A stretch of 37,514 bases of DNA from Archaeoglobaceae archaeon (GCA_025057895.1 JANXEF010000009.1:1-37514); one strand, 5' to 3'; shown: positions 27,403 to 33,737, numbered from the stretch's first letter. The notes: generated by a model not told the origin, from the letters alone. Made by a program: numbers and translations.

Positions 27403-27410
27403 ATTTTAAA
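27403..27410 (-). promoter_or_regulatory. TATA-like box for the HIT gene
   Basis: Minus-strand TTTAAAAT, about 22 bp from the ATG at 27384 and overlapping the stop codon of the winged-helix gene. The spacing is a little short. Confidence 0.4.
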
Positions 27411-27717
27411 TGTTTCCCAAAGCTTTTTCTAGTCTCAGAAATTCCTCGAATATCTGACTTTTTATTTTACGAATGACTTCTTTGGGCTCCTCCGCAGCAT
27501 ATTTGTAACCAAGCCATCTTTCTTCTACAAGTCTTCTTTTTACTATCCCTCTTCTCGTCAACTCTTTTAATCTTTCTCTAACAAATCTCGTTGAAAGACC
27601 AAGCTCTCTAGCAATCTCCCTGACTCCAAGTTCTTTTTTCTGAAGAAGTGAATATATTCTAACATCTGTCGGTTTTAGCCTAACTTTTTCTAGAAGTTCG
27701 ACGATTTCAGTTAACAT
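27406..27717 (-). CDS. Small winged-helix transcriptional regulator
   Basis: A 103-residue protein with an N-terminal winged helix-turn-helix: IYSLLQKKELGVREIARELGLSTRFVRERLKELTRRGIVKRR (about 21-62), then a wing with YKYAAE and a C-terminal helix probably for dimerisation. No ligand domain is present. It has a strong SD (GGAGGTGA) just upstream of the ATG at 27717, unlike most genes here. It is divergent from the two-gene radical SAM unit with only 68 bp between start codons, so it may control that unit and itself. The family is not identified beyond HTH class (MarR/ArsR/TrmB-like). Confidence 0.8.
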   Translation of the reverse strand: MLTEIVELLEKVRLKPTDVRIYSLLQKKELGVREIARELGLSTRFVRERLKELTRRGIVKRRLVEERWLGYKYAAEEPKEVIRKIKSQIFEEFLRLEKALGNI

Positions 27718-27757
27718 TCATTCACCTCCAACGTGTGAAGTTTTGAGATCATAATCT

Positions 27758-27765
27758 ATTTAAAC
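27758..27765. promoter_or_regulatory. TATA-like element shared by divergent genes
   Basis: ATTTAAAC is centred about 25 bp before the ATG at 27786 on the plus strand and also lies about 44 bp before the minus-strand regulator at 27717, where transcription would start near 27738, leaving a leader that contains the SD. The TTTAAA core reads the same on both strands, so one box could serve both directions. Confidence 0.45.
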
Positions 27766-27785
27766 ATTGCGAAAGTATAATTACT

Positions 27786-29174
27786 ATGATCGACAAAGTT
27801 ACGATGTTTTCTCATTTCGTCAATCCATTTACAAAAATCGCCTTAAAGCAGATTGCTTGCTACTGCGAAGAATGCAAGAAGAATAGACTTGAAATAGCTC
27901 TTGAATTATTCGTTGAATGCCGTAAAAACGCTTGTTGGAAATGTAAAACTGCTGAAAAAATCGTTGAACCTATACTCTTAAAAGGATGTGAAAGTTTCAA
28001 CGCAACTCCTGAAGAGATGAAAACAAAATTCAGAGACCCATACTGGCGTAAAGGTCTTGCGAATGTAATAAGAGGACTTGCAGAATTTGGAGTTAAAAAA
28101 CCCTTCATTCCAGGAGCACCTTTTCAGGTTGTTTGGGATATAACCTATGCTTGCAATCTTCGATGCAAACACTGTTATGCAACTGCTGGTAAAGCTCTAG
28201 ATGATGAATTGACAAAAGAGGAGGCAATAAATACGATCGACTCTCTTGAAAGACTTGGAGTGACGATCATAGCATTCTCTGGTGGAGAGCCTTTGGTGAG
28301 AAAAGATATCTATGAACTTACAAAATACGCCTCTGAAAAGGGTATCTACATAGCTATAGCGACTAACGGGACTATGATAAATGATGAGAGAGCAAAGAAA
28401 CTGAAAGAGAGTGGTGTCAGTTATATTCAGATAAGCCTTGATGGAATGAGAGAGACTCATGATGCCTTTAGGGGAATTAGAGGTGTTTTTGATAAAACCA
28501 TAGAAGGTATCAAGAAAGCTGTTCAACATGACTTCTTCGTAAATGTCTCGATGACGGTCACCAAATACAACTACCAAGAAGTAATAGAAGTGATAAAATT
28601 ATGTGAAGATCTCGGAGTCAATTGGTTCATGCACTATAATTTCATTCCCACTGGAAGAGGAAGAGAAATATTTAACTCCGATATCACTCCCGAAGAAAGA
28701 GAAAAGCTGCTAAGGATGCTTTATGAGAGAAATTTGAATTCAAAGATAAGTATCCTATCAACTGCACCTCAGTTTGCAAGAATAGCTCTTCAATGTTCTA
28801 ATGGTATAATTCCAACACACTTCTACAATTTAAATGCTGGAGAGAGGTTCAAAAAACTTGCTGAGTTCATTGGGGGTTGTGGAGCAGGAAGATTCTATTT
28901 TGCAATCAAAGCAAATGGAGATATTACTCCTTGTGTTTTCTTTCCGCTTGTTGTTGGAAATGTAAGATCTGATGATCTCGAAGAGTTGTGGAAAAAGAAC
29001 AAGATTTTTGAAGATCTTAGAAACAAAGATAAGCTCGAGATTTGTGGAGGATGCGAATATCGATATGTTTGTGGAGGTTGTAGGGCGAGAGCTTACAATT
29101 ATTTTGGAAGTTATTTGAAACCAGATCCTGGCTGCATTAGGAATAGGATGGTTTGGAAAGAAATAGTTTTATGA
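27786..29174 (+). CDS. Radical SAM/SPASM-type protein with cysteine-rich N-terminus
   Basis: A 462-residue radical SAM enzyme. The SAM motif is CNLRCKHC (C123, C127, C130), followed by FSGGEPLVRKD and the barrel. The C-terminal SPASM/Twitch-like domain has CGAG, CVFFPL and CGGCEYRYVCGGCRARAY plus a final Cys, for additional iron-sulfur clusters. The first 70 residues hold seven cysteines (25, 27, 30, 45, 50, 53, 68), possibly another cluster. Members of this class mature peptides (PqqE, anSME) or modify haem precursors (AhbC, AhbD); I cannot choose. No obvious precursor peptide gene is adjacent. Its stop overlaps the next ATG as ATGA, indicating coupling with the B12-radical SAM protein. Confidence 0.9.
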   Translation: MIDKVTMFSHFVNPFTKIALKQIACYCEECKKNRLEIALELFVECRKNACWKCKTAEKIVEPILLKGCESFNATPEEMKTKFRDPYWRKGLANVIRGLAEFGVKKPFIPGAPFQVVWDITYACNLRCKHCYATAGKALDDELTKEEAINTIDSLERLGVTIIAFSGGEPLVRKDIYELTKYASEKGIYIAIATNGTMINDERAKKLKESGVSYIQISLDGMRETHDAFRGIRGVFDKTIEGIKKAVQHDFFVNVSMTVTKYNYQEVIEVIKLCEDLGVNWFMHYNFIPTGRGREIFNSDITPEEREKLLRMLYERNLNSKISILSTAPQFARIALQCSNGIIPTHFYNLNAGERFKKLAEFIGGCGAGRFYFAIKANGDITPCVFFPLVVGNVRSDDLEELWKKNKIFEDLRNKDKLEICGGCEYRYVCGGCRARAYNYFGSYLKPDPGCIRNRMVWKEIVL

Positions 29175-30523
29175 TAACATTGATTAATCCAAATGTAAAG
29201 GTTGAAGTAGTAAAAACTCTTGAAATAGTCTCTCCCCCACTTGGTCTAGGTTATCTAGCCTCTGTTTTGCGTGAACGAGGTTTCAAGGTTAGAATCATTG
29301 ATGACCTTGTTGAGAAATTAAGTATTCAGGAATTAATCAGAAAAATAAAAGATTCTATAATTGTTGGGATTACTTCTACCACTCCAACTTTTAAATCTGC
29401 TCTTGAATATGCAAAAAAAATCAAAAAGACACTTCCAAATGTTTTCATAATCCTAGGAGGAGTTCATGTTACTTTTCAACCTGAAAAAACTCTAGAAAAT
29501 GACTTCGTTGACGCTGTATGTATTGGAGAGGGAGAAAAAACCATTTTAGATGTTGCAGAGAGAATTGAATCAGAAAAGAATCTAAAAAACATCAGAGGAG
29601 TTTACTACAAAGAAGAAGGAAGAATAAGAAAAAATCCTCTGCGGGAATTCATCGAAAACCTCGACTCAATTCCTTTTCCAGCATTTGATCTAATGCCGCT
29701 TGAAAATTATACTCTTCTAGGAAAAAAACTGGAAGTTTTTCCAATGATAACTTCCCGTGGTTGTCCTTTTGCTTGTAGATATTGTAGTTCATCACTCTTC
29801 ATGGGGCATCGATTCCGAGCAAGGAGTGTAAAAAACGTGGTTGATGAGATCGAGTGGCTTGTTGATGAATTCTATGCAAGACATATAGCATTCGGTGATG
29901 ACACTTTCACTCTGAACAAGAGGAGAGTAGAGGAAATCTGCAAAGAAATAAGAAAGAGAGGTATAGAAGTGACTTGGAGTTGCTCCTCGCGTATCGATAC
30001 AATAAACAATGATTTGCTGAAAATGATGAAATCTGCTGGATGTACCGCGATTTATTATGGAGTTGAGTCTTCTAGTAAAAGAATCATTGATTATTATAAA
30101 AAAAGAATTTCAATTGAAAAAGCGGTAGAAGTTGTAAAATTTACTAAAAAACTAAAAATAACAACCATTTGTTCTTTCATAATTGGAGCACCTATTGAAA
30201 CTAAAAATGAAATGGAAGAAACACTTAAACTTGCAATAAAGCTTGATCCCGATTATGCACAATTCTCGATTCTCACACCATATCCGGGCACTGAAATCTA
30301 CGAAGAAGCAAAGGAGAAGGGTTTACTATTGACAGAAAATTACGACGAATACACAGCAGGTAATCCTGTCTTAAGAACTCAGATTTCTAAAGAAGAACTT
30401 GCGAAATTCTTAAGAAGATGTTATATCCGATTCTATCTCCGACCAAAATTCATGATTCGAGAAATTAAAAAAAGAAATTTTGGTGTAATTATGAAAGTGA
30501 TAAAGAAAGTAATAAAGAGTTGA
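29171..30523 (+). CDS. B12-binding radical SAM protein
   Basis: A 450-residue protein with an N-terminal cobalamin-binding-like Rossmann domain (about 1-140: INPNVKVEVVKTLEIVSPPLGLGYLAS, ILGGVHVTF, CIGEGE) and a radical SAM barrel beginning SRGCPFACRYC (C198, C202, C205). No DxHxxG motif is evident, so base-off cobalamin binding would use other residues. Members methylate unactivated carbons or rearrange substrates (P-methyltransferases, hopanoid and bacteriochlorophyll methylases). The start ATG at 29171 overlaps the upstream stop; the frame extends to a TTG at 29153. Ends 5 bp before the convergent iorA stop. Confidence 0.9.
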   Translation: MITLINPNVKVEVVKTLEIVSPPLGLGYLASVLRERGFKVRIIDDLVEKLSIQELIRKIKDSIIVGITSTTPTFKSALEYAKKIKKTLPNVFIILGGVHVTFQPEKTLENDFVDAVCIGEGEKTILDVAERIESEKNLKNIRGVYYKEEGRIRKNPLREFIENLDSIPFPAFDLMPLENYTLLGKKLEVFPMITSRGCPFACRYCSSSLFMGHRFRARSVKNVVDEIEWLVDEFYARHIAFGDDTFTLNKRRVEEICKEIRKRGIEVTWSCSSRIDTINNDLLKMMKSAGCTAIYYGVESSSKRIIDYYKKRISIEKAVEVVKFTKKLKITTICSFIIGAPIETKNEMEETLKLAIKLDPDYAQFSILTPYPGTEIYEEAKEKGLLLTENYDEYTAGNPVLRTQISKEELAKFLRRCYIRFYLRPKFMIREIKKRNFGVIMKVIKKVIKS

Positions 30524-32474: not shown

Positions 32475-33737
32475 ATGTTCGATTTAGTCGTAAAAAACGG
32501 TCTTTGTCTTGTTGATGACAGATTCTTAGATTGTAACATTGGAATAGAAGGTAATAAAATTGCTTACATTGGAAAAAACAAAGTCAAAGGTGAGGAAGAA
32601 ATCAATGCTAGAGATTGTCTCGTATTACCTGGTTTTTTCAATGCTCATACCCATTCAGCAATGACTCTTCTTCGTGGTTATGCTGAAGCTCTTCCACTAA
32701 ATCAATGGCTTGATAAAGTATGGAAAATCGAAGCTATGCTTGATGAATCTTCGATTTACTGGGGCTCTATGCTTGCATGCATCGAAATGTTGAGAAATGG
32801 AGTCACATGTTTTGCAGACATGTATATACACATGGATAGTGTAGCAAAAGCTGTTGAAGAGAGTGGAATTAGAGCAGTTCTGGGATATGGAATGGCAGAT
32901 AGAGGAATAGAAGAGAGAATTGAGAAGGAAATAAGAATTGCAATGGATTTCAGCGAGAGATGGAATGGAAGGAGTAGAGTGAAAGTTATGCTAACGCCAC
33001 ATGCGATATATACTTGTTCTAAAGAGTTTCTATCAATAATAAACAAAATAGCAAAAGAAAAGGGAATTTTAAAACACATACATGTCTCCGAGACACTGTG
33101 GGAAGTTAAGGAATCAAAGAAAAAATTTGAGAAAACGCCAGTTGAACTTCTAGATTCCATAGGCTTTCTCGATAAAAAAACAATATTAGTTCACTGTGTC
33201 TGGCTGAGCGATGCTGAAATCAAAAAAATTGCTGAAAAAGAAGCTAGCGTAGTCCACTGCCCTTCAAGTAATCTAAAACTTTCATCAGGAATAGCAAGAG
33301 TTGCTGAAATGGTTGAAAGTGGTATTGATGTGGCAATTGGAACGGATGGTGCTGCGAGTAACAACATGTTAAATCCACTTCTCGAGGCTAGAACAGCAGC
33401 TTTACTACAGCAACTCAGAAGGAAGTTCTTAAATCCTTTGAAATACTTAGAAATGGTTTCTAAAAATGGATATATGATATATGGAATTGATGGAGGAGAG
33501 ATAATGGAAGGAAAAATCGCAGATATTGTCATCTTTGAACTTAAACTTCATCATATGCCTTTTTATGACTACAAAAATTCTCTGCTCTTCTCTTCAACTG
33601 GAAATGAAGTAAGAGATGTCATAGTAGATGGAAAGGTTGTATTGGAAGATAGAGAACTCGTTTATGTAGATGAAGAAAGAATATTAGATAAAATCTTAGA
33701 TAAAATCAGCAAAATTATTTCCCAAAATGGAGACTAA
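32475..33737 (+). CDS. mtaD: 5-methylthioadenosine / S-adenosylhomocysteine deaminase family amidohydrolase
   Basis: A 420-residue metal-dependent amidohydrolase of the MTA/SAH deaminase group. Metal ligands and motifs: NAHTHSAMTLLRG at about 56-68, HIHVSETLWEVKE, VHCVWLS, VHCPSSNLKLSSG and the catalytic GTDGAASNN. Members deaminate MTA, SAH, adenosine or 5'-deoxyadenosine, the by-product of radical SAM enzymes (DadD in methanogens); which substrate applies is not visible. The stop at 33735-33737 abuts the convergent CaiB-like gene with no gap. Confidence 0.93.
   Translation: MFDLVVKNGLCLVDDRFLDCNIGIEGNKIAYIGKNKVKGEEEINARDCLVLPGFFNAHTHSAMTLLRGYAEALPLNQWLDKVWKIEAMLDESSIYWGSMLACIEMLRNGVTCFADMYIHMDSVAKAVEESGIRAVLGYGMADRGIEERIEKEIRIAMDFSERWNGRSRVKVMLTPHAIYTCSKEFLSIINKIAKEKGILKHIHVSETLWEVKESKKKFEKTPVELLDSIGFLDKKTILVHCVWLSDAEIKKIAEKEASVVHCPSSNLKLSSGIARVAEMVESGIDVAIGTDGAASNNMLNPLLEARTAALLQQLRRKFLNPLKYLEMVSKNGYMIYGIDGGEIMEGKIADIVIFELKLHHMPFYDYKNSLLFSSTGNEVRDVIVDGKVVLEDRELVYVDEERILDKILDKISKIISQNGD

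What the first reader, a model, noticed from the sequence alone, without database searches (positions are those of the whole stretch)
27406..30523. Coupled SPASM-radical SAM and B12-radical SAM genes with a divergent regulator
A SPASM-type enzyme with seven extra N-terminal cysteines is ATGA-coupled to a cobalamin-type radical SAM protein. A small winged-helix gene, with a strong SD unlike most neighbours, is divergent from them across 68 bp. The pairing suggests a two-step modification of one substrate (cofactor, lipid or peptide), possibly under dedicated control. No precursor peptide or transporter is seen.
Basis: partly seen in the sequence, partly recalled or inferred. Interest (0 to 1): 0.6.

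Follow-up and report, generated by a model that had tools for sequence, protein, structure and literature searches.

The report
Archaeal membrane-lipid cross-linking gene pair
Two coupled enzyme genes in an Archaeoglobales archaeon very probably weld the two tails of its membrane-spanning lipids together and then add methyl groups; both enzyme types are known, but the small regulator gene beside them looks like an undescribed switch for this membrane-toughening step.

Summary
In detail: a SPASM radical SAM gene (27786-29174), ATGA-coupled to a cobalamin radical SAM gene (29171-30523), with a divergent winged-helix gene (27406-27717). The genome is an Archaeoglobales MAG. The SPASM protein is not AhbD, AhbC or NirJ and not a RiPP maturase. 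It matches GMGT synthase (Gms), which cross-links the two chains of tetraether lipids: six-helix N-terminal cap, same cysteine pattern, presence/absence across Thermococcales that follows GMGT phenotype, and Tes (tetraether synthase) in the same genome. The partner is best read as the GMGT methylase Gmm; that identity is inferred, because the paper describing Gmm was not available. The pair is contiguous in 14 of 20 sampled Halobacteriota genomes that hold both, and is ATGA-coupled in a Thermococcus too. Of the seven N-terminal cysteines only four (C27-x2-C30, C50-x2-C53) are conserved, and only in one clade: a probable metal site in the cap. The winged-helix gene is divergent from gms in at least 17 relatives, even where the methylase gene is absent, and in one relative sits divergent from a second lipid-type radical SAM gene instead. 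A dedicated regulator is therefore plausible. Verdict: a new member of a known kind, with an apparently new candidate regulator.

The parts
27406..27717 (-). Small winged-helix DNA-binding protein (103 aa), candidate local regulator
   Evidence: HTH_24/TrmB/HTH_5 above Pfam cut-offs; Lrs14/Sta1-like NCBIfam hits far below cut-offs. Orthologues (48-75% id) divergent from gms in at least 17 other genomes in several different gene contexts.
27718..27785 (.). 68-bp divergent promoter region: SD of the HTH gene, a degenerate TTC-N8-GAA-type element (about 27726-27739), a conserved GATCATAA block and a shared TTTAAA TATA-like box
   Evidence: Sequence; comparison of 18 relatives' intergenic regions; motif strong in the A. 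fulgidus group, weak in the window itself (3 mismatches, shuffle p 0.17).
27786..29174 (+). GMGT synthase (Gms) homologue: six-helix N-terminal cap, radical SAM core (C123/C127/C130), SPASM domain with two auxiliary clusters
   Evidence: Pfam PF04055 and PF13186; below cut-off for every NCBIfam equivalog; AlphaFold model pLDDT 85.8 with six N-terminal helices; closest solved fold SuiB; family distribution.
27864..27944 (+). CxxC-x19-CxxC motif (C27, C30, C50, C53) in the N-terminal cap, probable zinc or Fe-S site
   Evidence: Conserved in the clade that contains the window protein (C30 becomes D in some DPANN/Thermoproteota members), absent in other Gms clades.
29171..30523 (+). Cobalamin-binding radical SAM protein (450 aa, CX3CX2C at C198/C202/C205), putative GMGT/GDGT methylase (Gmm-like)
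   Evidence: PF02310 plus PF04055; nearest NCBIfam models HpnJ and BchE, both at less than 55% of cut-off; contiguous with gms in many archaea; co-occurs with gms in Thermococci, 9 of 9.

Best explanation
The pair is a membrane-lipid tailoring operon (gms-gmm). Step 1 (family membership shown, activity inferred): the SPASM enzyme is a GMGT synthase. Its radical SAM cluster makes a 5'-deoxyadenosyl radical that takes hydrogen from one biphytanyl chain of a GDGT made by Tes; auxiliary [4Fe-4S] clusters help to join that carbon to the other chain, giving an H-shaped lipid (GMGT). Step 2 (inferred): the cobalamin radical SAM enzyme transfers methyl groups from methylcobalamin to unactivated carbons of the cross-linked (or uncross-linked) core. 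The ATGA overlap couples their translation. Step 3 (inferred): the divergent winged-helix protein binds the shared 68-bp promoter and sets expression of both itself and the operon, probably in response to temperature or redox state.
For: Gms: the published enzyme has an N-terminal six-helix domain, RS domain, two-helix bridge and SPASM, with RS cysteines C123/C127 and AuxI cysteines C370/C372 (PMC11186832). P0001 has RS cysteines at 123/127/130 and six N-terminal helices in a confident model, and relatives carry the matching GGCGCG doublet. Best PDB fold is SuiB, the template used in that paper. Family presence tracks phenotype: present in G152 (length of P. horikoshii, a GMGT producer) and G153 (length consistent with T. 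guaymasensis), absent in G142 (T. kodakarensis), G185 (P. yayanosii) and G134 (P. abyssi). Tes is in the same genome at 743 bits against a cut-off of 450. Pair: contiguous in 14 of 20 sampled Halobacteriota genomes with both; ATGA or -1 nt coupling in two Thermococci; methylase-family orthologues in Thermococci only with gms, 9 of 9, Fisher p = 5e-4 ignoring phylogeny. Lipid context: UbiA prenyltransferase next to gms; clusters with a third radical SAM family whose S. acidocaldarius members lie where GrsA and GrsB are expected. HTH: divergent from gms in at least 17 genomes, and divergent from that third family in G249, where gms lacks it.
Against: No lipid data for this organism. P0001 is only about 47% identical to the presumed T. 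guaymasensis Gms and lies in a separate clade. In 6 of 20 genomes the two genes are apart, and some Archaeoglobaceae hold only one of them. The nearest named relatives of P0002 (HpnJ, BchE) are not methylases. The proposed operator is degenerate in the window.
Confidence: 0.72

Rival explanations
1. The SPASM protein is GMGT synthase but the B12 enzyme does something other than methylation (for example desaturation, ring formation or a rearrangement of the lipid core), as HpnJ and BchE do.
For: Closest curated models are HpnJ (259.8 bits of a 577.6 cut-off) and BchE (256.5 of 481.35), both non-methylating. A second B12-type family also neighbours gms and could be the methylase instead.
Against: The second family is widespread outside gms-bearing archaea (328 of 398 genomes of one phylum) and present in T. 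kodakarensis, so it fits a ring synthase better; the P0002 family is confined to gms-bearing Thermococcales. Methylated H-shaped lipids are abundant in hot anoxic sediments (PMC5572230).
Confidence: 0.2
2. The pair modifies a haem-type or other tetrapyrrole cofactor (AhbD/AhbC/NirJ-like step).
For: Top NCBIfam hit of P0001 is AhbD (TIGR04545, E 3.7e-89); BchE is a close model for P0002. No protein above the AhbD cut-off elsewhere in this 79%-complete genome.
Against: AhbD score is 300 of 500 bits and covers only residues 115-452, leaving out the 110-aa cap. A relative with an 82%-identical gms has separate AhbD/AhbC-type genes at 40% and 36% identity. The published Gms homologues were explicitly separated from AhbC/AhbD.
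Confidence: 0.04
3. The pair is a RiPP-type peptide maturation system whose precursor was missed.
For: SPASM enzymes and B12 radical SAM enzymes are typical RiPP maturases; SuiB and SkfB are the nearest folds.
Against: No small ORF recurs next to the pair in relatives; the only recurrent neighbours across contexts are the two enzymes and the HTH gene. The N-terminal cap is helical, matching the Gms description, not a RiPP recognition element.
Confidence: 0.03

Closest known systems
GMGT synthase Gms (Li et al. 2024, PMC11186832; Garcia et al. 2024)
   Same: Six-helix cap + radical SAM + SPASM, RS cysteines at 123/127, GGC(G/A)(C/A)G AuxI motif, found in strict anaerobes that also have Tes, adjacent or near to the B12 partner in Thermococcales.
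   Different: About 47% identical to the presumed T. guaymasensis enzyme; separate clade with an extra CxxC...CxxC motif in the cap, lacking in the Thermococcus forms and in a second Archaeoglobaceae paralogue group.
GMGT methylase Gmm (Garcia et al. 2024, PNAS; title and topic from citing papers, details from memory)
   Same: Radical SAM lipid-tailoring partner that co-occurs with Gms.
   Different: Sequence of Gmm not available here, so direct homology was not tested.
AhbD / AhbC / NirJ
   Same: Same SPASM superfamily; AhbD is the highest-scoring curated model.
   Different: Below cut-off (300 of 500 bits), no N-terminal cap, separate paralogues in relatives.
HpnJ / BchE cobalamin radical SAM enzymes
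   Same: Same domain order, nearest curated models to P0002.
   Different: Scores less than 55% of cut-offs; Archaeoglobales are not known to make hopanoids or bacteriochlorophyll (general knowledge).
Lrs14/Sta1-type archaeal winged-helix regulators
   Same: Size and HTH fold, weak HMM similarity (31-32 bits).
   Different: Far below family cut-offs (80-90 bits); tied to tetraether-tailoring genes.

Membership tests
GMGT synthase (Gms) | Radical SAM CX3CX2C plus SPASM with two fully ligated auxiliary clusters | tested here: met
   C123/C127/C130; C365, C383, C420, C423, C429, C432, C450 invariant.
GMGT synthase (Gms) | N-terminal domain of six helices | tested here: met
   Helices 4-11, 14-23, 34-42, 51-70, 75-82, 85-101.
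GMGT synthase (Gms) | Beta-hairpin inserted in the bridging region | tested here: inconclusive
   Residues 343-351 have pLDDT under 50 in the model.
GMGT synthase (Gms) | Over 420 aa, over 30% identity, E < 1e-50 to a verified Gms | tested here: inconclusive
GMGT synthase (Gms) | Distribution follows GMGT production | tested here: met
   Present in P. horikoshii-length genome; absent in T. kodakarensis-, P. yayanosii- and P. abyssi-length genomes (phenotypes).
GMGT synthase (Gms) | Substrate GDGT available (Tes in the genome) | tested here: met
   Tes 743 bits against 450; PDB 7tol E 5e-156.
GMGT synthase (Gms) | Produces GMGT | not testable with these tools
   Needs expression and lipid mass spectrometry.
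GMGT methylase (Gmm) | B12-binding plus radical SAM architecture | tested here: met
   PF02310 and PF04055; C198, C202, C205 invariant. That Gmm itself has this architecture is from memory.
GMGT methylase (Gmm) | Co-occurrence with Gms | tested here: met
   9 of 9 Thermococci with the orthologue have gms; but the partner occurs without gms in three Archaeoglobaceae genomes.
GMGT methylase (Gmm) | Homology to the published Gmm sequence | not tested
   Paper not held.
AhbD (haem b synthase) | Score above TIGR04545 cut-off | tested here: not met
   299.5 bits of 500.
RiPP maturase system | Conserved precursor peptide gene nearby | tested here: not met
   No recurrent small ORF of 45 aa or more across contexts besides the HTH gene.

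The most novel reading that the evidence does not exclude
The winged-helix gene encodes a dedicated, autoregulated switch for tetraether tailoring in Archaeoglobales that controls gms-gmm here and a ring-synthase-like gene in relatives, and the CxxC...CxxC metal site in the Gms cap marks a functionally distinct Gms subtype.
Probability: 0.35. Interest if true: 0.6.

Novelty: new member of a known kind. Interest (0 to 1): 0.42.

Why it matters
Cross-linked and methylated tetraethers are among the most heat-resistant known membrane lipids and are used as environmental biomarkers. A conserved gms-gmm operon in Archaeoglobales points to a source organism group for them. To my knowledge no transcriptional regulator of this cross-linking has been described; the divergent winged-helix gene gives a concrete one to test.

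Tried and rejected
AhbD/haem reading: rejected on score, coverage and separate paralogues. RiPP reading: rejected, no recurrent small ORF. Looking for P. furiosus by its rubredoxin to anchor Gms: no identical match in the held genomes, best 87%. Fetching the Gmm paper: not held. A TTC-N8-GAA palindrome as a common operator: strong in the A. fulgidus group but only weak in the window, and the test is partly circular because the pattern came from the same sequences. The second B12 family (Y) as the methylase: less likely, since it is widespread and present in T. kodakarensis.

Full report
What is there. The HTH gene has a GGAGGTGA Shine-Dalgarno; the SPASM gene has none and probably starts close to its transcription start, with a TTTAAA TATA-like box in the shared gap. 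The genome is an Archaeoglobales MAG: 1.01 Mb in 40 contigs, 79% complete; nearest named relatives are Archaeoglobales/Archaeoglobaceae MAGs.

The SPASM enzyme. No curated NCBIfam equivalog claims it; the best, AhbD, reaches 299.5 of 500 bits and covers only residues 115-452. The 110 residues before that form six helices in a confident AlphaFold model (mean pLDDT 85.8), which is the architecture published for GMGT synthase: six-helix N-terminal domain, radical SAM domain, two-helix bridge, SPASM (PMC11186832). The RS cysteines of the verified M. okinawensis enzyme are C123 and C127, the same numbers as here, and its AuxI pair C370/C372 fits the GGCGCG motif of many relatives (GGCGAG in the window protein). 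Its nearest solved folds are SuiB and SkfB, with Tes further down.

Distribution anchors the family. Genomes in the collection are unnamed, but contig lengths equal (from my knowledge) those of well-known species: 2,088,737 (T. kodakarensis), 1,716,818 (P. yayanosii), 1,765,118 (P. abyssi), 1,738,505 (P. horikoshii), 2,178,400 (A. fulgidus), 1,560,622 (A. profundus). The P0001 family is absent from the first three and present in P. horikoshii. PMC11186832 reports that T. kodakarensis and P. yayanosii lack gms and GMGT, and PMC7356043 reports over 15% GMGT in P. horikoshii. A 1,920,914-bp genome (G153, probably T. guaymasensis, the discovery species) carries a 480-aa homologue as about its twentieth gene; it is 46.6% identical to P0001. 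The window's genome also has Tes, which makes the GDGT substrate.

The partner. P0002 is a B12-binding radical SAM protein that fits no curated equivalog. Homologues adjoin gms in Archaeoglobaceae, other Halobacteriota and Thermoproteota, and in two Thermococci with ATGA or -1 nt coupling. In 20 sampled Halobacteriota genomes that hold both, the genes are contiguous in 14 (9 co-directional, 5 convergent) and apart in 6. In Thermococci, orthologues of the partner occur only in genomes with gms (9 of 9; Fisher p = 5e-4, ignoring phylogeny), often 5-9 kb away and in the opposite orientation, so the link is not one inherited arrangement. Garcia et al. 2024 described a GMGT methylase, Gmm, as the second enzyme of this pathway; the paper is not held, and I rely on its title in citing papers and on memory. 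Methylated H-shaped tetraethers are abundant in sediments above 80 C (PMC5572230). I therefore read P0002 as Gmm-like, with moderate confidence.

A third lipid-type enzyme. A second B12-type radical SAM family (Y; in this genome at L139:360-1826) also neighbours gms or its partner: Y-gms-X in G153, gms-X-Y in L025 and L214, gms-Y in L017 and L114, near gms in L124, X-Y in A. profundus (X stands for the P0002 family). In the S. acidocaldarius-length genome its members lie at 1354 kb and 200 kb, consistent with GrsA (Saci_1585) and GrsB (Saci_0240), the GDGT ring synthases; this is inferred from gene order only. A UbiA prenyltransferase directly precedes gms in three MAGs. These neighbours all point to membrane lipids.

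The N-terminal cysteines. Of the seven, C25, C45 and C68 are not conserved. C27, C30, C50 and C53 form CxxC-x19-CxxC, conserved in the clade of the window protein (C30 is sometimes D) and missing in the Thermococcus forms and in a second Archaeoglobaceae paralogue group. In the model the first pair lies in a small hairpin and the second at the start of a helix, an arrangement typical of a zinc site; this is inference.

The regulator. Orthologues of the HTH gene stand divergent from gms in at least 17 genomes with different flanking genes, including genomes where the methylase gene is missing and including the paralogue group without CxxC. In G249, whose gms-gmm pair lacks it, an orthologue (57%) is divergent from the Y gene by 94 bp. 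The HTH thus follows tetraether-tailoring genes rather than one locus. The gap regions of the window's genus share a GATCATAA block and a TATA-like box, and in the A. fulgidus group there is a GTTC-N8-GAAC palindrome; in the window the palindrome is degenerate. A regulatory role is plausible, not shown.

Verdict. The pair is a gms-gmm type lipid-tailoring operon: known enzyme kinds in a lineage where, as far as I know, they are not characterised, with an apparently undescribed candidate regulator.

Noticed in passing
L139:360-1826 (own genome C11); L112:14995-16617; L114:5513-7132; L214:6167-7792; L120:5434-6882: A second B12-type radical SAM family that clusters with gms and/or its partner, widespread in Thermoproteota and consistent in position with GrsA/GrsB in an S. 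acidocaldarius-length genome.
   Followed up: partly
L170:3044-3346: HTH orthologue divergent (94 bp) from the Grs-like gene in a relative whose gms-gmm pair has no HTH next to it.
   Followed up: partly
L011, L013, L032, directly upstream of gms: UbiA-family prenyltransferase and a MarR/GbsR-like regulator on the same strand just before gms; the two Diapherotrites-labelled MAGs carry an Archaeoglobales-like gms and may be misbinned or reflect transfer.
   Followed up: partly
L211, L213, L216 (Thermococcus/Pyrococcus gms loci): A different winged-helix gene (GbsR/MarR-like, about 156-164 aa) and a 105-aa membrane protein gene beside gms, i.e. another candidate regulator in another lineage.
   Followed up: no
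L119:3807-4796 (A. veneficus-length genome): gms homologue interrupted by an in-frame TGA, split into 329 and about 137 aa; may be a pseudogene.
   Followed up: no
L002:7394-8188: The methylase-type gene next to gms looks broken (264-aa piece, internal segment missing).
   Followed up: no
window 32475-33737: Amidohydrolase resembling 5'-deoxyadenosine/MTA/SAH deaminases (below curated cut-offs), 2 kb downstream; could dispose of the 5'-deoxyadenosine that radical SAM enzymes release, but was not seen beside gms in other contexts.
   Followed up: partly
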